Assembly (NCBI GenBank): GCA_036245525.1
Contig: BTPG01000005.1
Span: forward strand, 119,240,917-119,304,916
DNA: 64,000 nt
Direction of reading: 5' to 3'
Source of the DNA: Semisulcospira habei
Lineage: Eukaryota > Mollusca > Gastropoda > Semisulcospiridae
Numbering within the stretch: the stretch's first letter is position 1; each line of letters begins with the position of its first letter. The notes beneath the pieces were generated by a model. That model searched no databases and was not told where the DNA came from. It was given only the letters and a program-made list of their open reading frames with translations. Of this stretch, positions 1-63,800 are shown in pieces. The translations under genes and the position numbers were made by a program.

Positions 1-3000
1 GAGGTGGTGATGATGATGATGAGGAGGAGGAGGAGGTGGTGATGATGATGATGAGGAGGAGGAGGAGGTGGTGATGATGATGATGAGGAGGAGGAGGATG
101 GTGGTGATGATGATGATGAGGAGGAGGAGGAGGTGGTGATGATTGATGATGAGGATGGAGGAGGAGGTGGTGATGATGATGATGAGGAGGAGGAGGATGG
201 TGGTGATGATGATGATGAGGAGGAGGAGGAGGTGGTGATGATGATGATGATGAGGAGGAGGAGGTGGTGATGATGATGATGATGAGGAGGAGGTGGTGGT
301 GATGATGATGATGAGGAGGAGGAGGAGGTGGTGATGATGATGATGATGAGGAGGAGGAGGTGGTGATGATGATGATGATGAGGAGGAGGAGGTGGTGATG
401 ATGATGATGAGGAGGAGGAGGAGTGGGGTGATGATGATGATGATGAGGAGGAGGAGGTGGTGATGATGATGATGATGAGGAGGAGGAGGTGGTGATGATG
501 ATGATGAGGAGGAGGAGGATGGTGGTGATGATGATGATGATGAGGAGGAGGAGGTGGTGATGATGATGATGATGATGAGGAGGAGGTGGTGATGATGATG
601 ATGATGATGAGGAGGAGGAGGTGGTGATGATGATGATGATGATGAGGAGGAGGTGGTGATGATGATGATGATGATGAGGAGGAGGTGGTGATGATGATGA
701 TGATGATGAGGAGGAGGTGGTGATGATGATGATGATGATGAGGAGGAGGTGGTGATGATGATGATGATGAGGAGGAGGAGGTGGTGATGATGATGATGAT
801 GAGGAGGAGGAGGTGGTGATGATGATGATGATGATGAGGAGGATGGTGGTGATGATGATGATGATGAGGAGGAGGAGGTGGTGATGATGATGATGATGAG
901 GAGGAGGAGGTGGTGATGATGATGATGATGAGGAGGAGGAGGTGGTGATGATGATGATGATGAGGAGGAGGAGGTGGTGATGATGATGATGATGAGGAGG
1001 AGGAGGTGGTGATGATGATGATGATGAGGAGGAGGAGGTGGTGATGATGATGATGATGAGGAGGAGGAGGTGGTGATGATGATGATGATGAGGAGGAGGA
1101 GGTGGTGATGATGATGATGATGAGGAGGAGGAGGTGGTGATGATGATGATGATGAGGAGGAGGAGGTGGTGATGATGATGATGATGAGGAGGAGGAGGTG
1201 GTGATGATGATGATGATGAGGAGGAGGATGGTGGTGATGATGATGATGATGAGGAGGAGGAGGTGGTGATGATGATGATGATGAGGAGGAGGAGGTGGTG
1301 ATGATGATGATGATGAGGAGGAGGAGGTGGTGATGATGATGATGATGAGGAGGAGGAGGTGGTGATGATGATGATGATGAGGAGGAGGAGGTGGTGATGA
1401 TGATGATGATGAGGAGGAGGAGGTGGTGATGATGATGATGATGAGGAGGAGGAGGTGGTGATGATGATGATGATGAGGAGGAGGAGGTGATGATGATGAT
1501 GATGATGAGGAGGAGGAGGTGATGATGATGATGATGATGAGGAGGAGGAGGTGATGATGATGATGATGATGAGGAGGAGGAGGTGATGATGATGATGATG
1601 ATGAGGAGGAGGAGGTGATGATGATGATGATGATGAGGAGGAGGAGGTGATGATGATGATGATGATGAGGAGGAGGAGGTGATGATGATGATGATGATGA
1701 GGAGGAGGAGGTGTTGATGATGATGATGATGAGGAGGAGGAGGTGATGATGATGATGATGAGGAGGAGGAGGTGATGATGATGATGATGATGAGGAGGAG
1801 GAGGTGATGATGATGATGATGATGAGGAGGAGGAGGTGATGATGATGATGATGATGAGGAGGAGGAGGTGATGATGATGATGATGATGAGGAGGAGGAGG
1901 TGATGATGATGATGATGATGAGGAGGAGGAGGTGATGATGATGATGATGATGATGAGGAGGAGGAGGTGATGATGATGATGATGATGATGAGGAGGAGGA
2001 GGTGATGATGATGATGATGATGATGAGGAGGAGGAGGAGATGATGATGATGATGATGATGAGGAGGAGGAGGAGATGATGATGATGATGATGATGAGGAG
2101 GAGGAGGAGATGATGATGATGATGATGATGAGGAGGAGGAGGAGATGATGATGATGATGATGATGAGGAGGAGGAGGAGATGATGATGATGATGATGATG
2201 AGGAGGAGGAGGAGATGATGATGATGATGATGATGAGGAGGAGGAGGAGATGATGATGATGATGATGATGAGGAGGAGGAGGAGATGATGATGATGATGA
2301 TGATGAGGAGGAGGAGGAGATGATGATGATGATGATGATGAGGAGGAGGAGGAGATGATGATGATGATGATGATGAGGAGGAGGAGGAGATGATGATGAT
2401 GATGATGATGAGGAGGAGGAGGAGATGATGATGATGAGGATGATGAGGAGGAGGAGGAGATGATGATGATGATGATGATGAGGAGGAGGAGGAGATGATG
2501 ATGATGATGATGATGAGGAGGAGGAGGAGATGATGATGATGATGATGATGAGGAGGAGGAGGAGATGATGATGATGATGATGATGAGGAGGAGGAGGAGA
2601 TGATGATGATGATGATGATGAGGAGGAGGAGGAGATGATGATGATGATGATGATGAGGAGGAGGAGGAGATGATGATGATGATGATGATGAGGAGGAGGA
2701 GGAGATGATGATGATGATGATGATGAGGAGGAGGAGGAGATGATGATGATGATGATGATGAGGAGGAGGAGGAGATGATGATGATGATGATGATGAGGAG
2801 GAGGAGGAGATGATGATGATGATGATGATGAGGAGGAGGAGGAGATGATGATGATGATGATGATGAGGAGGAGGAGGAGATGATGATGATGATGATGATG
2901 AGGAGGAGGAGGAGATGATGATGATGATGATGATGAGGAGGAGGAGGAGATGATGATGATGATGATGATGAGGAGGAGGAGATGATGATGATGATGATGA

Positions 3001-3492
3001 TGAGGAGGAGGAGATGATGATGATGATGATGATGAGGAGGAGGAGATGATGATGATGATGATGATGAGGAGGAGGAGATGATGATGATGATGATGATGAG
3101 GAGGAGGAGATGATGATGATGATGATGATGAGGAGGAGGAGATGATGATGATGATGATGATGAGGAGGAGGAGATGATGATGATGATGATGATGAGGAGG
3201 AGGAGATGATGATGATGATGATGATGAGGAGGAGGAGATGATGATGATGATGATGATGAGGAGGAGGAGATGATGATGATGATGATGATGAGGAGGAGGA
3301 GATGATGATGATGATGATGATGAGGAGGAGGAGATGATGATGATGATGATGATGAGGAGGAGGAGATGATGATGATGATGATGATGAGGAGGAGGAGATG
3401 ATGATGATGATGATGATGAGGAGGAGGAGATGATGATGATGATGATGATGAGGAGGAGGAGATGATGATGATGATGATGATGATGAGGAGGA

Positions 3493-3523
<31 letters not shown>

Positions 3524-3525
3524 GA

Positions 3526-3556
<31 letters not shown>

Positions 3557-3558
3557 GA

Positions 3559-3592
<34 letters not shown>

Positions 3593-3594
3593 GA

Positions 3595-3625
<31 letters not shown>

Positions 3626-3627
3626 GA

Positions 3628-3661
<34 letters not shown>

Positions 3662-3663
3662 GA

Positions 3664-3694
<31 letters not shown>

Positions 3695-3696
3695 GA

Positions 3697-3730
<34 letters not shown>

Positions 3731-3732
3731 GA

Positions 3733-3769
<37 letters not shown>

Positions 3770-3771
3770 GA

Positions 3772-3805
<34 letters not shown>

Positions 3806-3807
3806 GA

Positions 3808-3854
<47 letters not shown>

Positions 3855-3985
3855 GGAGATGATGATGATGATGATGATGATGATGAGGAGATGATGATGA
3901 TGATGATGATGATGATGAGGAGATGATGATGATGATGATGATATGGAGATGATGATGATGATGAGGAGATGATGATATGCAGATG
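1..3985. repeat. GAT/GAG composite satellite (32-35 bp period)
   Basis: Tandem array built from runs of GAT followed by runs of GAG. Early units (to about 1490) are 32 bp and contain GGTGGT; from about 1490 to 2035 the marker becomes GGTGAT at the same period; from about 2036 to 2960 units are 35 bp with AGATG instead of GGTG; to about 3490 they are 32 bp again, then 29-35 bp and irregular. There is no C on the plus strand until position 3980. Reading frames of Met/Glu across it are composition artefacts. Confidence 0.97.
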
Positions 3986-3996
3986 ATGATATGGAG

Positions 3997-4061
3997 GAGA
4001 TGAGATGAGATGAGATGAGATGAGATGAGATGAGATGAGATGAGATGAGATGAGATGAGAN
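3997..4061. repeat. GATGA pentanucleotide repeat ending in an ambiguous base
   Basis: About 12 copies of GATGA close the satellite. Position 4061 is n, the only ambiguous base seen in the window, right at the satellite/unique junction. The assembled satellite length may therefore be unreliable. Confidence 0.9.
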
Positions 4062-28384: not shown

Positions 28385-29284
28385 AGAGACATTGGAGATT
28401 ATCAACCCAGTATGGCCTGGAGACAAACACGAACAGGGTGTCGGATTTCTCGTCCACAAAGACATCGTGAACACTGTCATGAGTTGTCGGCCAGTCTCCA
28501 GTAGGCTTATCACCATACGCTTGAGGGCAACCCCATTTAATATCACCATTGTACAAGTTTACGCCCCAACAACAGACTATGGCGATGAGGAAATAGAAGA
28601 CTTATATTACCAACTGCAAGAAGTCTTGGACCAGACCCCAAGAAAGACATTCTTGTGGTGCAGGGAGACTGGAATGCTAAAATAGGAAAGGATGCTGCTA
28701 GGAACTGGAAAGGCACATGCGGACGTTACTGCAATGCAGAGACCAACGACAGAGGGTTAAGGATCCTGGAATTTTCCAGCTGAAATGATATATAGCTGAT
28801 AAACACGTTCGGCCCCCAAAAAGCATCCAGAGGGTAGACATGGCACAGCCCGAACGGAGAGCACCATAACCAAATTGACTACATCATGGTGAAGAGACGC
28901 TTCCAAACCAGTGTGAACATTGCCAAGACCAGAAGTTTTCCAGGAGCAGACATTGGAAGCGACCATGACTTGATGATGATGATGATGACCTTCCGACTCC
29001 GACTAAAGAAGGTCAACAAGCAGGGTCCCACCAGAATCAAGTTTGACCTCGAGAAGACGAAAGACCCAGAGGTAGCGGAAGCCTTCCAGGCAAAGATACG
29101 AGGAAAATTCGCGCCACTGCTAATTCTAGGTGCAGAAGATGTGGATGTGGACACACTGATCGACAGATTTAACACTGCTGTAACCCAGACAGCCAGTGAG
29201 ATCCTTGGCAAACACCGAAAAGCAAAGAAACCTTGGGTTACAGCTGACATCTTTGTTCTATGTGACAAGCGTCGAGAATTAAAG
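28385..29284 (+). pseudogene. RTE/BovB-type LINE fragment, endonuclease part (5' of insertion)
   Basis: Closely matches 61450-62337 of the longer copy. It encodes part of the apurinic-like endonuclease: HEQGVGFLVHKDIVNTVMSC, ITIVQVYAPTTDYGDEEIE, then, after frame breaks near 28650, IDYIMVKRRFQTSVNIA. A GATGAT expansion lies at 28974-28986. The copy is interrupted after GTCGAGAATTAAAG (29271-29284) by the hammerhead-bearing insertion and continues for only 47 bases at 31706-31752. Confidence 0.9.
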
Positions 29285-29538
29285 GTTACAAAGTAAAGTA
29301 GGTTATAGCACTGTCAGGGGAGAGAAATGTGCATGATCGACCAGTGATCATAGATCTACTGTGGCCAAAGCACAAAAAAAAAAAGATAGGAAAGAGAGGG
29401 GGCGCTAAGAAAGTGACCGAAAGCAATGCATATGGAAGCCCCCCCCGAAGGGGGGCGTATCACATATCCACTGTTCCAGCCACTCAGTGCATGGAAATTT
29501 AAATCTAGGTCCCCCAAGGGGGGTCCAGATATTTAGCC

Positions 29539-29582
29539 GGTGTGGACAGCTGTTTCGGTCTAGGCGACCTCTTCAGCACACC
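29539..29582 (-). ncRNA. Hammerhead ribozyme, unit 1
   Basis: Self-cleaving RNA motif read on the minus strand. Stem I GGUGUG pairs with CACACC; conserved CUGAAGA; stem II GGUC pairs with GACC around loop GCCUA; GAAA; stem III ACA pairs with UGU around GC; cleavage triplet GUC. Stem I extends outward (GCC/GGC, UAUU/AAUA, CCAG/CUGG) past a GAU bulge, giving a type I hammerhead. The 3-bp stem III is the form that usually works as a dimer in tandem transcripts. Confidence 0.92.
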
Positions 29583-30056
29583 ATCGGCAATACTGGAGGA
29601 GGCAGGAAATTCTGCCTACCTGCAATGACAACCACATTTTACTGTGGTGTCTGCAGGGGCATACATTCCATGCCACCACCCAGAGTTAAATCTCCATGCA
29701 CCCTAAAAGAGAACCTACCAAAAGGGGGGAAGGGGTTGCAGTCGATATTGTAGTGATAAATGAAAAGAAAAGGGGAGACTGCCAGTGCTAATATTTTAGG
29801 AAGGTTACAAAGTAAAGTAGGTTATAGCACTGTCAGGGGAGAGAAATGTGCATGATCGACCAGTGATCATAGATCTACTGTGGCCAAAGCACAAAAAAAA
29901 AAGATAGGAAAGAGAGGGGGCGCTAAGAAAGTGACCGAAAGCAATGCATATGGAAGCCCCCCCCGAAGGGGGGCGTATCACATATCCACTGTTCCAGCCA
30001 CTCAGTGCATGGAAATTTAAATCTAGGTCCCCCAAGGGGGGTCCAGATATTTAGCC

Positions 30057-30100
30057 GGTGTGGACAGCTGTTTCGGTCTAGGCGACCTCTTCAGCACACC
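30057..30100 (-). ncRNA. Hammerhead ribozyme, unit 2
   Basis: Same 44-nt core as unit 1 with every conserved base intact, 518 bp further on. In a multimeric minus-strand transcript, cleavage at this and the adjacent sites would release unit-length RNA of about 518 nt. Confidence 0.92.
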
Positions 30101-30573
30101 ATCGGCAATACTGGAGGAGGCAGGAAATTCTGCCTACCTGCAATGACAACCACATTTTACTGTGGTGTCTGCAGGGGCATACATTCCATGCCACCACCCA
30201 GAGTTAAATCTCCATGCACCCTAAAAGAGAACCTACCAAAAGGGGGGAAGGGGTTGCAGTCGATATTGTAGTGATAAATGAAAAGAAAAGGGGAGACTGC
30301 CAGTGCTAATATTTTAGGAAGGTTACAAAGTAAAGTAGGTTATAGCACTGTCAGGGGAGAGAAATGTGCATGATCGACCAGTGATCATAGATCTACTGTG
30401 GCCAAAGCACAAAAAAAAAAGATAGGAAAGAGAGGGGGCGCTAAGAAAGTGACCGAAAGCAATGCATATGGAAGCCCCCCCGAAGGGGGGCGTATCACAT
30501 ATCCACTGTTCCAGCCACTCAGTGCATGGAAATTTAAATCTAGGTCCCCCAAGGGGGGTCCAGATATTTAGCC

Positions 30574-30617
30574 GGTGTGGACAGCTGTTTCGGTCTAGGC
30601 GACCTCTTCAGCACACC
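30574..30617 (-). ncRNA. Hammerhead ribozyme, unit 3
   Basis: Identical core; 517 bp from unit 2. CTGAAGA, GAAA and GTC elements are all present on the minus strand. Confidence 0.92.
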
Positions 30618-31090
30618 ATCGGCAATACTGGAGGAGGCAGGAAATTCTGCCTACCTGCAATGACAACCACATTTTACTGTGGTGTCTGCAGGGGCATACA
30701 TTCCATGCCACCACCCAGAGTTAAATCTCCATGCACCCTAAAAGAGAACCTACCAAAAGGGGGGAAGGGGTTGCAGTCGATATTGTAGTGATAAATGAAA
30801 AGAAAAGGGGAGACTGCCAGTGCTAATATTTTAGGAAGGTTACAAAGTAAAGTAGGTTATAGCACTGTCAGGGGAGAGAAATGTGCATGATCGACCAGTG
30901 ATCATAGATCTACTGTGGCCAAAGCACAAAAAAAAAAGATAGGAAAGAGAGGGGGCGCTAAGAAAGTGACCGAAAGCAATGCATATGGAAGCCCCCCCGA
31001 AGGGGGGCGTATCACATATCCACTGTTCCAGCCACTCAGTGCATGGAAATTTAAATCTAGGTCCCCCAAGGGGGGTCCAGATATTTAGCC

Positions 31091-31134
31091 GGTGTGGACA
31101 GCTGTTTCGGTCTAGGCGACCTCTTCAGCACACC
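31091..31134 (-). ncRNA. Hammerhead ribozyme, partial unit 4
   Basis: Identical core. The truncated unit stops about 15 bp beyond, so on the RNA sense strand the left arm begins almost exactly at the base of extended stem I (CCAGUAUUGCC). Confidence 0.92.
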
Positions 31135-31363
31135 ATCGGCAATACTGGAATATATTAGCACTGGCAGTCTCCCCTTTTCTTTTCATTTATCACTACAATA
31201 TCGACTGCAACCCCTTCCCCCCTTTTGGTAGGTTCTCTTTTAGGGTGCATGGAGATTTAACTCTGGGTGGTGGCATGGAATGTATGCCCCTGCAGACACC
31301 ACAGTAAAATGTGGTTGTCATTGCAGGTAGGCAGAATTTCCTGCCTCCTCCAGTATTGCCGAT

Positions 31364-31407
31364 GGTGTGCTGAAGAGGTCGCCTAGACCGAAACAGCTGT
31401 CCACACC
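31364..31407 (+). ncRNA. Hammerhead ribozyme, inverted unit
   Basis: Plus-strand copy: GGTGTG (31364-31369), CTGAAGA (31370-31376), GGTC/GACC stem II, GAAA (31390-31393), ACAGCTGT stem III, cleavage expected after C31401, CACACC (31402-31407). Confidence 0.92.
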
Positions 31408-31705
31408 GGCTAAATATCTGGACCCCCCTTGGGGGACCTAGATTTAAATTTCCATGCACTGAGTGGCTGGAACAGTGGATATGTGATACGCCCCCCTTCG
31501 GGGGGGCTTCCATATGCATTGCTTTCGGTCACTTTCTTAGCGCCCCCTCTCTTTCCTATCTTTTTTCTTTGTGCTTTGGCCACAGTAGATCTATGATCAC
31601 TGGTCGATCATGCACATTTCTCTCCCCTGACAGTGCTATAACCTACTTTACTTTGTAACCTTCCTAAAATATTAGCACTAGCAGTCTCCCCTTTTCTTTT
31701 CATTT

Positions 31706-31752
31706 GTCGAGAATTAAAGAAAAAGAAATCAGAGGTAGAAGGAGCTAAACAA
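31706..31752 (+). pseudogene. RTE/BovB-type LINE fragment, continuation after insertion
   Basis: Starts with the second copy of the 14-bp duplication and continues AAAAAGAAATCAGAGGTAG as in the intact copy at 62326-62370. Cut off at CTAAACAAT by the tail of a minus-strand LINE. Confidence 0.85.
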
Positions 31753-34075: not shown

Positions 34076-34266
34076 ATTGTTTGCGTTTTTTCCTGAAACC
34101 ACAGGAACAGGCAACCCAAACGAGTCCGAAACAGTATATTTAAGACGTAAGAAGTATATGTAAGGCGTAGACATCGTGGTATAGGGCTTCACTTGCATGA
34201 GGTTCCTGATTCTGTGGTGTACCGAACGAACGTGCTGACAATTGACATGTAGCCGGTGCCTGACTG
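34076..34266. other. No gene seen
   Basis: Unique spacer between the solo LTR and the 280-bp tandem duplication. Confidence 0.45.
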
Positions 34267-34827
34267 TCAGCGCTAGCCAATCAGAGTGCGCGAATGAGAC
34301 ACACCCGCGTCACAGTGATGCCAAAAGTCGGCCATTTTTGTCCGACAACCGAGGCTGGTGACGGAGGTAACTGAGAGAGAAAAGAAATGCCTGGGGCCTT
34401 TGTAAACGCGATTCCAGATATCCTGAGCGTCTAGCAGGTGGTGTAAGGTTCATACCATTCCCAAAGCAATGAAAAATTCATGCGATGGATCAAATTCTGT
34501 GGTAGATCGCATCACTGAGCAGATGAACGTCAGTAAAGTGGACTGGTCAGCGCTAGCCAATCAGAGTGCGCGAATGAGACACACCAGCGTGATGCCAAAA
34601 GTCGGCCATTTTTGTCCGACAACCGAGCTGGTGACGGAGGTAACTGAGAGAGAAAAGAAATGCCTGGGGCCTTTGTAAACGCGATTCCAGATATCCTGAG
34701 CGTCTAGCAGGTGGTGTAAGGTTCATACCATTCCCAAAGCAATGAAAAATTCATGCGATGGATCAAATTCTGTGGTAGATCGCATCACTGAGCAGATGAA
34801 CGTCAGTAAAAGTAAAGTGGATGGAAG
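34267..34827 (+). repeat. 280-bp tandem duplication with CCAAT boxes
   Basis: Two copies, starting at 34267 and 34547, 280 bp apart and nearly identical (copy 1 has an extra CCGCGTCACAG-like stretch, copy 2 an extra AGTAAA). Each begins TCAGCGCTAGCCAATCAGAG, a CCAAT-box-like promoter motif, includes a GTCGGCCATTTTTGTCCGAC hairpin, and ends after GATGAACGTCAGTAAA. Located 0.7-1 kb upstream of the THAP-type exon, so a duplicated promoter or first exon is plausible but unproven. Confidence 0.8.
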
Positions 34828-59042: not shown

Positions 59043-59365
59043 TTAATTCCTCGGCATTTGTGCGAAGACTGGAGAACTGAGAGGGCCAAAGTCGTACTTA
59101 TTTCGTGCAGCAACTTGAAACATGTACCTCTCGCCGCCTATCAGGTTGGGAATAACCACCGACTGAACGGATCCGAACAGGGGGAACTGATACGTGCCTC
59201 TGGTTGGAAGATCGTTCTGATCGACGCTCGCAAAATTGATTACGTATCCGGTGACGTCCTCAGATTCTGGGGCGGGTGCGGGCGAGGGTGTGTCCCGCCA
59301 CTGAAGGTAGACGGCACTGTTGTTGACTGCTTCGACGTTGTAGACTTGGGGCCGCCCTGGCATAC
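59043..59365 (-). CDS. Fibronectin type III domain, terminal exon of a host gene
   Basis: Minus-strand exon after an acceptor TTCTGCCTCTAG (59366-59377). About 106 codons forming one FN3 domain: GRPQVYNVEAVNNSAVYLQW with the B-strand Trp, VTGYVINFASVDQND with the C-strand Tyr, and IPNLIGGERYMFQVAARNKY with the L..G..Y.F.V.A.N signature, ending GPLSSPVFAQM and a TAA at about 59044. FN3 modules occur in adhesion receptors, tyrosine phosphatases and muscle giant proteins, so the gene cannot be named from this exon. Upstream exons should lie to the right on the minus strand but I see none by eye. The frame is clean, unlike all the neighbouring reading frames. Confidence 0.8.
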
Positions 59366-59542
59366 CTAGAGGCAGAAGACAGAATCGAAAATGAAAGTGA
59401 CTGCCAAGCGTGTAAAATGTTTGGAAAAAACAAAGAAACTCGAATCAGAAGAAACAATAAAGAAACAAACACGCTTCAGAGAACAAGGACAAGAAGTGTG
59501 TAAATGTGAGGAAATAACACAGAAACAAAGTTCTTATCCCAT

Positions 59543-60880: not shown

Positions 60881-63800
60881 ATGTTCACATCTGCACGGGA
60901 CATAGACGACCCCGCCCTCCACGAGTCGCCTGCTGCCTTGCAGGTTAGGTTTTAGATAACCAAAGGCTAGGGTGCTGACACGGTACCTGATTGGGTGTAT
61001 GAACTTCCTTGATGAAGTCACCACTCAGGGCGAAAGAGTCCCAGGAGGGTCTCATCGGCCAAGTGTCCAGGACCAAGGCGAGCCACAAGTTATGTGGAGT
61101 TTCGGTTGTGGTTAACAGCCTGGAGAGGGATGGGCTCCGCCAGGTTCTTTTGCCCAAGACACACCACATGCAATGACAACCTTACCTCAATCCATACCGG
61201 ATCGGTCGTCGCCCGGAACAAGGACCGCGCCTTCTGTCTTGCGCCAGATCAGAGGTGTTAAGTGTGTTACTGGTGCACCATCACCATCAAACCTCCGTGC
61301 CAGAAACAACATCAGCATTGGCACTTGGAACGTCAGAACATTAAGAACGCGTGGAAAGGTAGAGGAACTGACACATAAAATGAACAGATACCATTGGACC
61401 ATCCTAGGACTTTGCAAAGTACGATGGAAGAACCTTGGGGAAACATCAACCCAGGAAAACTGTACTACAGTGGCAGAGAAGACAAACACGAACAGGGTGT
61501 CGGATTTCTAGTCCACAAAGACATCGTGAACACCGTCATGAGTTGTCGGCCAGTCTCCAGTAGGGTTATCACCATACGCTTGAGGGCAACCCCATTTAAT
61601 ATCACCATTGTACAAGTTTATGCCCCAACAACAGACTATGGCGATGAGGAAATAGAAGACTTCTATGACCAACTGCAAGAAGTTCTGGACCAGACCCCCA
61701 AGAAAGACATTCTTGTGGTGCAGGGAGACTGGAATGCCAAAATAGGAGAGGATGCTGCTAGGAACTGGAAAGGCACATGCGGACGCTACTGCAATGCAGA
61801 GACCAACGACAGAGGCTTAAGGTTCCTGGAATTTGCCAGTTCAAATGATCTAAAGCTGATGAACACGTTTGGCCCGCACAAAGCATACAGAAGGTGGACA
61901 TGGCACAGCCCGAACGGAGAGCACCATAACCAAATTGACTACATCATGGTAAAGAGACGCTTCCAAACCAGTGTGAACATTGCCAGGACAAGACGTTTTC
62001 CAGGAGCAGACATTGGAAGCGACCATGACTTAGTGATGATGACCTTCCGACTCCGCCTAAAGAAGGTCAACAAGCAGGGTCCCACCAGAATCAAGTTTGA
62101 CCTCGAAAAGCTGAAAGACCCAGAGGTAGCGGAAGCCTTTCAGGCAAAGATAGGAGGAAAATTCGCACCACTGCTACTTCTAGGTGCAGAAGACACGGAC
62201 GTGGACACACTGATTGAAACATTTAACACTGTTGTAACCCAAACAGCCAGTGAGTTCCTTGGCAAACACCGACAAGCAAAGAAACCTTGGGTTACAGCTG
62301 ACATCTTTGTTCTATGTGACAAGCGTCGAGAATTAAAGAAAAAGAAATCAGAGGTAGAAGGAGCTAAACAATACAGGGAAATTAACCAGGATATCAAGAA
62401 AAGCATGAAAAAGGCAAAGAATAAGTGGATTGAATATCAGTGTAATCACGTAGAAGAAAATCTGAACAAAAATAATAACAAAAAAGCGTACCAGCTGGTG
62501 AAAGACCTGACCAGTGTAAAACAAGGACGCTCCTCGATCATTCAAGATAGTGAAGGGAACTGTCTTACGGAAGACCAAGACATACTGAAGAGATGGACAG
62601 AGTACTGCTCAGATTTGTACAACCACCCAGCTGCAGGGGACCCAGGCATACTTGTCAACCCACCCGTGACCAACAATGGCAACTATCCCATCCTCCGAGA
62701 AGAGGTAGAGACTGCAGTGAAGTCGCTGAAAAAAAGGGAAGGCAGCAGGAGCAGACAACATCCCTGCAGAGCTAGTCCAAGAAGGGGGAGAAGACACGAT
62801 AAGCGCCTTGCTAACAATCTGCAATAAGATCTGGCAGTTAGGGAATTGGCCAACACCATGGACCCAATCACTTATAATAACTCTCCCCAAAAAAGGCAAC
62901 TTACATCAATGCCAGAACTATCGCACGATCAGTCTTATATCCCACCCAAGCAAAGTCATGTTAAAGATCCTACTGAACAGGCTGAAGCCACAGGCAGAGG
63001 AAATCATAGCTGAGGAACAGGCAGGCTTCAGACCAGGGCGCAGCACAACTGAGCAGATCTTCAACCTGAGAGTTCTATGTGAGAGATACCTCCAGCACCA
63101 GCAGGACCTCTATCATGTCTTTGTGGATTTTAAGTAGCGTTTGACAGGGTGTGGCATGCAGCCCTTTGGTCCACCATGAAGCTATTCAACATCAATGCCA
63201 ACCTGATCAAAGTCATAGCAAACCTTTACAACAAGGCCACTAGCGCAGTCTGCTTCAACGGCAAAATAGGAAACTGGTTTAGGACTACAGTTGGAGTCAG
63301 ACAAGGCTGCTTGCTCTCACCTACTCTTTTCAACATCTTCCTGGAAAGAATCATGATGGACGCTCTGAAAGATCATGAAGGAACTGTCAGTATTGGAGGC
63401 AGAACAATCACGAACTTGCGCTTTGCGGACGACATTGATGGCCTTGCAGGAACAGAGAAGGAGCTAGCTCAGCTGGTGGAAAAGCTGGATAGTACAGCCA
63501 TTGCATATGGGATGGAAATCAGTGCAGAGAAGACCAAACTGATGACGAATAACGCCAGTGGCATTAGCACTGAAATCATGGTTGGAGGCCAAAAACTGGA
63601 CACGGTTAAGAAATTCAAATACTTAGGAGCCATTGTGACAGATGAGGGATCAAAACCAGAAATACTGTCCAGGATTGCGCAGACAACAACAGCACTGACA
63701 AGATTGAAGACCATAATATGGAAGGACAGAAACATCACACTCTGCTCCAAGATCAGACTGATGCGCTCCTTAGTCATCTCAGTGTTCTTGTATGCCTGCG

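What the first reader, a model, noticed from the sequence alone, without database searches (positions are those of the whole stretch)
29285..31705. Tandem hammerhead-ribozyme element (five intact ribozymes) inserted in a LINE
Each 518-bp unit contains a full hammerhead: stem I GGUGUG/CACACC, CUGAAGA, stem II GGUC/GACC, GAAA, stem III ACA/UGU and GUC. All five copies keep every core base. Hammerheads in retrozymes and Penelope-like elements are established; this unit, longer than usual animal retrozymes and without any encoded polymerase, may be a new family.
Basis: partly seen in the sequence, partly recalled or inferred. Interest (0 to 1): 0.97.

Follow-up and report, generated by a model that had tools for sequence, protein, structure and literature searches.

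The report
Circular-RNA ribozyme jumper, Penelope-style insertion
A 518-base non-coding mobile element that carries a self-cutting RNA (a hammerhead ribozyme) sits inside another transposon, and the pattern of its copies suggests that it jumps by being copied round and round from a small RNA circle by a Penelope-type enzyme, a step long proposed for animal ribozyme elements but not pinned down.

Summary
Confirmed: 29285-31705 is a 2,421-bp insertion with a 14-bp target duplication in a LINE; a second LINE copy at 61480-62372 shows the empty site. It holds five identical type I hammerheads, four on the minus strand and one on plus, in two head-to-head arms. Rfam's type I model scores 22.8 bits, below its cut-off of 34. 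By anatomy it is a metazoan retrozyme. In the same 1.98-Gb genome I analysed 39 loci (the best-matching, so probably young). In 27 both outer ends are RNA 3'-type; in 26 of these one arm starts at site A and the other about 46 nt downstream at site B. Target duplications of 13-15 bp occur in 27 of 39, and nicks favour ^NTT on both strands. These resemble Penelope-like (PLE) insertions. Variants shared between loci sit in all units of a locus or in a single unit, with three exceptions beside a T run, so each insertion seems to come from one monomer, best explained by a monomeric RNA circle copied repeatedly. The class, the circle and a PLE helper had been proposed before. RNA, cleavage and the helper remain unshown.

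The parts
29271..29284 (.). left target-site duplication GTCGAGAATTAAAG
   Evidence: single copy at the empty site 62325-62338
29285..31705 (.). whole retrozyme insertion, 2,421 bp
29285..31149 (-). left arm: ribozyme-sense strand on minus, 3.6 units; outer end at 29285 is RT start site A
31149..31705 (+). right arm: ribozyme-sense strand on plus, 1.07 units; outer end at 31705 is RT start site B, about 46 nt further than A
29545..29576 (-). hammerhead core motif, copy 1 (predicted cut 3' of C at 29545)
30063..30094 (-). hammerhead core motif, copy 2
30580..30611 (-). hammerhead core motif, copy 3
31097..31128 (-). hammerhead core motif, copy 4
31370..31401 (+). hammerhead core motif, copy 5 (predicted cut 3' of C at 31401); Rfam RF00163 match 31364-31407
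29783..29832 (-). predicted stem-loop A (8 bp, 34-nt loop) across the junction of units 1 and 2; site A is 21 nt into the loop
   Evidence: also in the circular fold; prediction only
29738..29782 (-). predicted stem-loop B (6 bp, 33-nt loop); site B is 19 nt into the loop
   Evidence: and the circular fold; not in the best fold of a longer stretch
31706..31719 (.). right target-site duplication GTCGAGAATTAAAG

Best explanation
A non-autonomous metazoan retrozyme with a 518-nt unit, probably mobilised by a Penelope-like enzyme from a monomeric RNA circle. Inferred: an array is transcribed, the hammerheads (probably as dimers) cut out 518-nt monomers, and a host ligase closes them into circles. 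A GIY-YIG reverse transcriptase cuts both target strands 13-15 bp apart in front of NTT; one 3' end primes cDNA synthesis at site A, the other at site B. Each cDNA runs round the circle, up to nine units, and the two cDNA ends are joined, giving head-to-head arms between target duplications. Shown here: ends, duplications, orientation, nick bias, one-monomer haplotypes. Not shown: RNA, cleavage, the circle itself, the helper enzyme.
For: Empty site and 14-bp duplication. A/B outer ends in 26 of the 27 loci with two RNA 3'-type ends, of 39 examined (corrected); by hand 28/2^27, about 2e-7, if ends were drawn independently at 50:50. Duplications of 13-15 bp in 23 of 39, 27 of 39 after a rescan that allowed mismatches (one has a mismatch). 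NTT after 24 of 46 nicks against 8.6% background. 32 minus-to-plus junctions; in the maps plus is followed by minus only between separate pieces. Shared variants are in all units of a locus, both arms, or in one unit; within-locus difference 1.8% against 8.3% shuffled, 0 of 1000 as low. L066 carries in all 8 units the three substitutions of one unit of L047. Circle fold -194.5 against -139.9, sd 6.6, for 60 shuffles.
Against: No RNA or cleavage data. Rfam below cut-off. A transcript of a perfectly uniform array could mimic a circle. For the anole PLE, insertion in vitro did not need ribozyme cleavage, unprocessed RNA was the main template, and RT starts did not differ between strands (PMC11167929), which fits neither the circle nor the strict A/B pairing. 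Duplications here are 13-15 bp; those named in the rotifer passages I saw are 8-10. That paper explains head-to-head repeats by self-priming. Five GIY-YIG loci read in this genome show no hammerhead or shared signal. Stem-loop B is missing from the best fold of a longer stretch.
Confidence: 0.7

Rival explanations
1. A LINE mobilises the RNA by target-primed reverse transcription, and the inverted arms are 'twin priming' on a linear multimeric transcript.
For: LINEs are abundant in the window; twin priming gives inverted 5' parts and variable duplications (recalled).
Against: Both outer ends fall at two fixed internal sites (26 of 27); no poly(A) at the ends printed; duplications nearly constant at 13-15 bp and the same NTT bias on both strands; one-monomer haplotypes.
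Confidence: 0.12
2. The unit is the pseudo-LTR of an autonomous hammerhead-bearing PLE of this genome, and the arrays are its ORF-less derivatives rather than an independent retrozyme family. Same insertion machinery, different origin.
For: PLE pseudo-LTRs carry hammerheads, occur in direct and inverted copies with a tail, and can act in trans. GIY-YIG genes are present: 35 matches, 83 matches of one family.
Against: None of the 39 loci has an ORF between units (arms contiguous apart from short gaps); unit has no frame of 120 aa or more; the five GIY-YIG loci read do not match the unit beyond 25 nt, though their 5' parts may be missing.
Confidence: 0.25
3. Template is a linear multimer transcribed from a homogeneous array, not a circle; insertion still PLE-like.
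For: Anole PLE uses unprocessed RNA in vitro; most arrays are homogeneous, so their transcripts would be too.
Against: Existing arrays carry many single-unit variants (92 of 109 private variants), yet variants shared between loci are all-unit or single-unit with three exceptions. L066 matches one unit of L047, not the row of its units.
Confidence: 0.2
4. Ordinary satellite DNA spread by DNA recombination, the hammerhead being decayed or decorative.
For: Tandem arrays; Rfam below threshold.
Against: Dispersed insertions with duplications and an empty site; fixed ends; whole ribozyme motif in 120 of 125 units, although its columns vary no less than the rest (13 against 12.6 expected).
Confidence: 0.02

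Closest known systems
Metazoan non-LTR retrozymes (Cervera and de la Pena 2020, PMC7229834; parts 1-4 of 6 read, i.e. main text to the Discussion, no supplements)
   Same: Type I hammerhead in tandem non-coding units, GC under 50%, duplications longer than 4 bp, no LTR features
   Different: Unit 518 against about 170-400; RNA circle not shown here; insertion anatomy (A/B ends, inverted arms) not described in what I read
Penelope-like elements (PMC11167929 parts 1-2 of 4; PMC3846280 passages and Discussion)
   Same: Hammerhead, tandem plus inverted repeats head-to-head, tail at one end, RT start at two adjacent internal sites, both strands cut, AT-rich targets with ATT-type motif
   Different: No ORF in the element; tail about 46 instead of 30-40 bp; duplication 13-15 instead of the 8-10 bp in the rotifer passages; ends strictly paired A/B
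Amphibian satellite 2 type hammerhead repeats (described in PMC7229834)
   Same: Short stem III with a palindromic loop, expected to cleave better as a dimer
   Different: 330-350 nt units; insertion anatomy not seen in the text read
Plant LTR retrozymes (PMC4918200, search listing only; described)
   Same: Non-autonomous, ribozyme-made circles proposed as template
   Different: Type III hammerhead, LTRs, 4-bp duplications, Gypsy helper proposed

Membership tests
Metazoan non-LTR retrozyme | type I hammerhead in every tandem unit | tested here: met
   five of five in the window; 120 of 125 long units; Rfam type I only at 22.8 of 34 bits
Metazoan non-LTR retrozyme | no coding capacity, no LTR | tested here: met
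   no frame of 120 aa or more inside; repeats are whole units, not LTRs. PBS/PPT not looked for
Metazoan non-LTR retrozyme | unit about 170-400 nt | tested here: not met
   517-519 bp; the paper itself allows circles of 150 to over 1000 nt, so I treat size as descriptive
Metazoan non-LTR retrozyme | GC under 50%, duplications over 4 bp | tested here: met
   47.7%; 13-15 bp
Metazoan non-LTR retrozyme | self-cleavage and circular/linear monomer RNA | not testable with these tools
   no RNA data; haplotypes only suggest a circle
Penelope-like element | ORF with RT and GIY-YIG endonuclease | tested here: not met
   no ORF in the element; so not filed as a PLE
Penelope-like element (mode of insertion) | direct plus inverted repeats, head-to-head, tail at one end | tested here: met
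   26 A/B of 27 loci with two 3'-type ends, of 39; 32 head-to-head junctions
Penelope-like element (mode of insertion) | AT-rich target, ATT-type nick on both strands | tested here: met
   NTT at 24 of 46 nicks, ATT at 6 of 46 against 2.1%
Penelope-like element (mode of insertion) | helper PLE sharing the cis signals | tested here: inconclusive
   PLE-type genes present but 0 of 5 loci read share them
LINE-mobilised SINE | 3' end at a poly(A) or LINE-like tail | tested here: not met
   ends printed show none; comparison with LINE 3' ends was not made

The most novel reading that the evidence does not exclude
A distinct retrotransposition mode: a dimeric PLE enzyme sits on one small ribozyme-made RNA circle at two adjacent stem-loops, one per protomer, cuts both target strands 13-14 bp apart and fires two reverse transcriptions from the same circle, each rolling around it, so that one circle yields a head-to-head array in a single event. 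The ribozyme's purpose would then be to make an endless template.
Probability: 0.45. Interest if true: 0.87.

Novelty: new variant of a known kind. Interest (0 to 1): 0.74.

Why it matters
Which enzyme moves animal retrozymes has been open: a 2020 review says that the repeats show no conserved motif from which the helper could be deduced (PMC7761336, section 7). The ends, duplications, nick bias and haplotypes found here are such signs (PLE-type machinery, one-monomer template) and can be checked in any animal genome with retrozymes. My searches of the held library (listings, capped) showed no title or abstract reporting them. Two key papers (Cervera 2014, Lunse 2017) are not held, and supplements could not be read, so I cannot say that it is not in print.

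Tried and rejected
Rfam at gathering score, and with E up to 10 on 2.6 kb, gave no hammerhead; only a 101-nt search did. Three pattern scans of viral contigs: two empty, one with 12 hits that I judged chance by a hand estimate and did not use. PLE loci L071-L075 were examined for the ribozyme and for the unit: none beyond 25-nt matches; a vague likeness of a pyrimidine-rich stretch in L071/L072 to the RT-start loops was not tested and is dropped. A likeness of stem-loops A and B to each other (9 of 2000 shuffles score as high) was chosen after seeing it and is not used. Run-off of RT at hammerhead cuts is not supported: inner ends scatter, 1 of 64 within 5 nt of the cut. Hairpin self-priming as a general cause of the inversion is not supported, because the inner breakpoints of the two arms mostly differ (L054 and L045 have overlaps of 87 and 32). 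Two older, diverged copies in L059 and L064 also end B/A, but their duplications carry 1-2 mismatches; they are not counted. Purifying selection on the ribozyme is not shown: its columns vary as expected by length (13 against 12.6). One search's 115 diverged motifs contain the core by construction of the pattern and at least one looks like chance.

Rows dropped: HSPs under 25 bp or 85% identity for ends; units under 380 bp or 92% identity for haplotypes; alignment columns 378, 458 and 482 (homopolymer edges) from the difference and shuffling tests; loci without an exact duplication of 13 bp or more from the nick motif (23 of 39 used). Sample: the places listed, grouped by me into 38 further loci, all fetched; the tool scored 40 of 1,730 candidates, so the sample favours close matches.

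Full report
What is there. The window holds a 2,421-bp insertion at 29285-31705 flanked by GTCGAGAATTAAAG on both sides. A second copy of the same LINE in the window (61480-62372; joined flanks 93.7% identical over 899 aligned columns) has that sequence once and no insert, so insertion and duplication are shown by an empty site. The insert is built of a 517-519 bp unit: 3.6 units with the ribozyme strand on minus, then, at 31149, a switch to 1.07 units with the ribozyme strand on plus. The units differ in homopolymer lengths; the few substitutions lie in the plus arm, one in the A run, one in the last 50 bp, and some at the inner junction. No stop-to-stop frame of 120 aa or more lies inside.

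The ribozyme. Each unit carries GGTGTG-CTGAAGA-GGTC-GCCTA-GACC-GAA-ACAGCTGT-C-CACACC, with an outer GCC/GGC pairing after a GAU bulge: a type I hammerhead with every core base. A descriptor finds only these five in 64 kb and none in 300 simulated windows. Rfam's type I model aligns from end to end at 22.8 bits, below the curated 34; at gathering score Rfam finds nothing in the window. Stem III is short and ACAGCUGU is its own complement, as in amphibian retrozymes that cleave better as dimers (PMC7229834). Alone, the 53-nt core folds better another way (-21.5 against -13.7 kcal/mol), so activity of a single copy is uncertain. In fetched copies 120 of 125 units of at least 480 bp keep the whole motif. 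The genome holds 330 exact 32-nt motifs, reversed control 0, and 115 diverged ones, control 1. Folded as a circle the unit is more stable than shuffles (-194.5 against -139.9, sd 6.6, 60 shuffles).

Other copies. The window's own genome (1.98 Gb, unnamed) gave 233 matches; the tool scored 40 of 1,730 candidates. I grouped the places listed into 38 further loci, fetched all 38 and analysed them with the window's own: 39. They are the best-matching, so probably the youngest, copies.

Ends. The common architecture is a minus arm followed by a plus arm (32 such junctions); in the maps plus followed by minus occurs only between separate or diverged pieces (L054, L058, L059, L064). An arm's outer end is the 3' side of the ribozyme-strand RNA. 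It falls within a few bases of site A (...ACTTTGTAAC) or within about 7 bases of site B (...CCCCTTTTCTTTTCATTT), about 46 nt downstream of A. The script counted A/B 25, 5'-end/A 6, 5'-end/B 1, A/A 1, B/B 1, and 5 with an unclassified end. The B/B locus (L039) is B/A with a 15-bp duplication once a separate 34-bp piece is left out. That gives A/B 26, A/A 1 (L066), B/B 0 among the 27 loci with two 3'-type ends. The other 12 have one truncated or unclear end; two of these (L033, L035) run into N. Whether one arm is A or B cannot be told from strand alone.

Target. Exact duplications of 13-15 bp occur in 23 of 39 loci (13 bp in 12, 14 in 9, 15 in 2). A rescan of the other 16, with mismatches allowed, added L039 (15), L064 (13), L066 (14, with 8 nt of filler) and L061 (one mismatch), making 27 of 39. 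Reading each nick as duplication^flank on its own strand (46 nicks of 23 loci), T is 74% and 70% at +2 and +3, and NTT follows 24 of 46 nicks against 8.6% in the flanks, binomial p 3e-14; the bias is present for A arms and for B arms.

RNA signals. Sites A and B lie 21 and 19 nt into the 34- and 33-nt loops of two adjacent predicted stem-loops, which also appear in the circular fold. In the best fold of a longer stretch stem-loop A remains but B is replaced by another pairing, and an isolated piece that ends inside loop A does not show stem A. Older copies are too few for a covariation test. This part is prediction.

Template. I aligned 144 units; 18 substitution columns are shared by two or more loci. 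Their minor letters are in all units of a locus, in both arms - 216G in 9 of 9 (L049), 9 of 9 (L050), 5 of 5 (L058), 3 of 3 (L063); 434G in 8 of 8 (L066), 5 of 5 (L047); 245A in 6 of 6 (L069) - or in a single unit. The exceptions are column 458 in L049 (2 of 9) and L060 (5 of 6) and column 482 in L046 (3 of 4), both at the edges of the T run. Within-locus difference at shared sites is 1.8% against 8.3% in shuffles, none of 1000 as low; between the two arms of one locus it is 2.4%, within an arm 1.3%, between loci 8.5%. Private variants lie mostly in one unit (92 of 109; all units 6; some 11), so later homogenisation is not a good explanation. L066 carries in all 8 units the three substitutions of one of the five units of L047, as if that unit had been the source; gene conversion is not excluded. 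Each insertion thus seems to have passed through one monomer, yet arms run up to 9 units (L049) without a break at the ribozyme cut, and inner ends do not gather at the cut (1 of 64). A monomeric circle copied repeatedly explains both; a transcript of a uniform array is not excluded.

Comparison. PLEs insert in this style: direct repeats with an adjacent inverted repeat, most often head-to-head, and a tail at one end (PMC3846280, passages and Discussion). The one enzyme tested cuts and extends both strands at ATT-type sites and starts RT at two adjacent internal sites in a stem-loop (PMC11167929, parts 1-2 of 4). Differences and contrary points: in that enzyme the start sites did not differ between strands, ribozyme cleavage was not needed in vitro and unprocessed RNA was the main template; the rotifer paper explains the inversions by self-priming and names duplications of 8-10 bp. 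Retrozymes supply the ribozyme, tandem units and circles (PMC7229834, parts 1-4 of 6). A PLE helper had been proposed from shared type I hammerheads, tandem copies and co-occurrence, while a review found no motif that would reveal the helper (PMC7761336, passages and section 7). The genome has GIY-YIG genes (35 matches, 150 of 1,583 candidates scored), one family with 83 matches (75 of 2,805 scored). Pfam calls GIY-YIG in four loci tested again and in L072, and a weak RT match only in L074; calling them PLEs rests on that and on my reading of the frames. None of the five loci read has the hammerhead or the unit; only 5.5-7 kb of each was seen. The helper is unidentified.

Host. Among named relatives of the LINE are Babylonia, Aplysia and Biomphalaria, but also fish, crustaceans and others (120 of 799 listed); a named PLE relative is from Batillaria. 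A gastropod is a guess.

Verdict. The finding is real. By anatomy it is a member of the retrozyme class, one descriptive feature (size) outside the described range and the RNA untested. It inserts like a Penelope element without being one. The paired A/B ends and one-monomer haplotypes are the points I have not seen described.

Noticed in passing
1-4058: Large minisatellite: 32-bp GAGGTGATGATG... unit, about 121 copies, 97% matches, running off the window start.
   Followed up: no
34262-34810: Near-identical tandem duplication of a 273-bp unit (2.0 copies, 96% matches), unrelated to the 518-bp unit by the self-search.
   Followed up: no
61379-63137: Second copy of the host LINE, with endonuclease and part of the reverse transcriptase (Pfam); it gives the empty site.
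   Followed up: yes
59043-59444: Likely host exon with a fibronectin type III domain on the minus strand.
   Followed up: no
L047:4139-4655 and L066: One unit of L047 carries the three substitutions found in all 8 units of L066: a possible parent unit and its daughter insertion.
   Followed up: partly
L049, L069: Unit lengths within one insertion vary (516-528 and 519-534) through homopolymer runs while substitutions are few in L049, as if the runs slipped during reverse transcription.
   Followed up: no
L058, L059, L064: Diverged (72-88%) copies of the same family lie within about 1.5 kb of the young insertion; in L059 and L064 they also end B/A.
   Followed up: partly
L071-L075: GIY-YIG genes of at least two sequence types beside microsatellites; L075 also holds a long array of short repeats reading LTHNPLSGLR.
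   Followed up: partly
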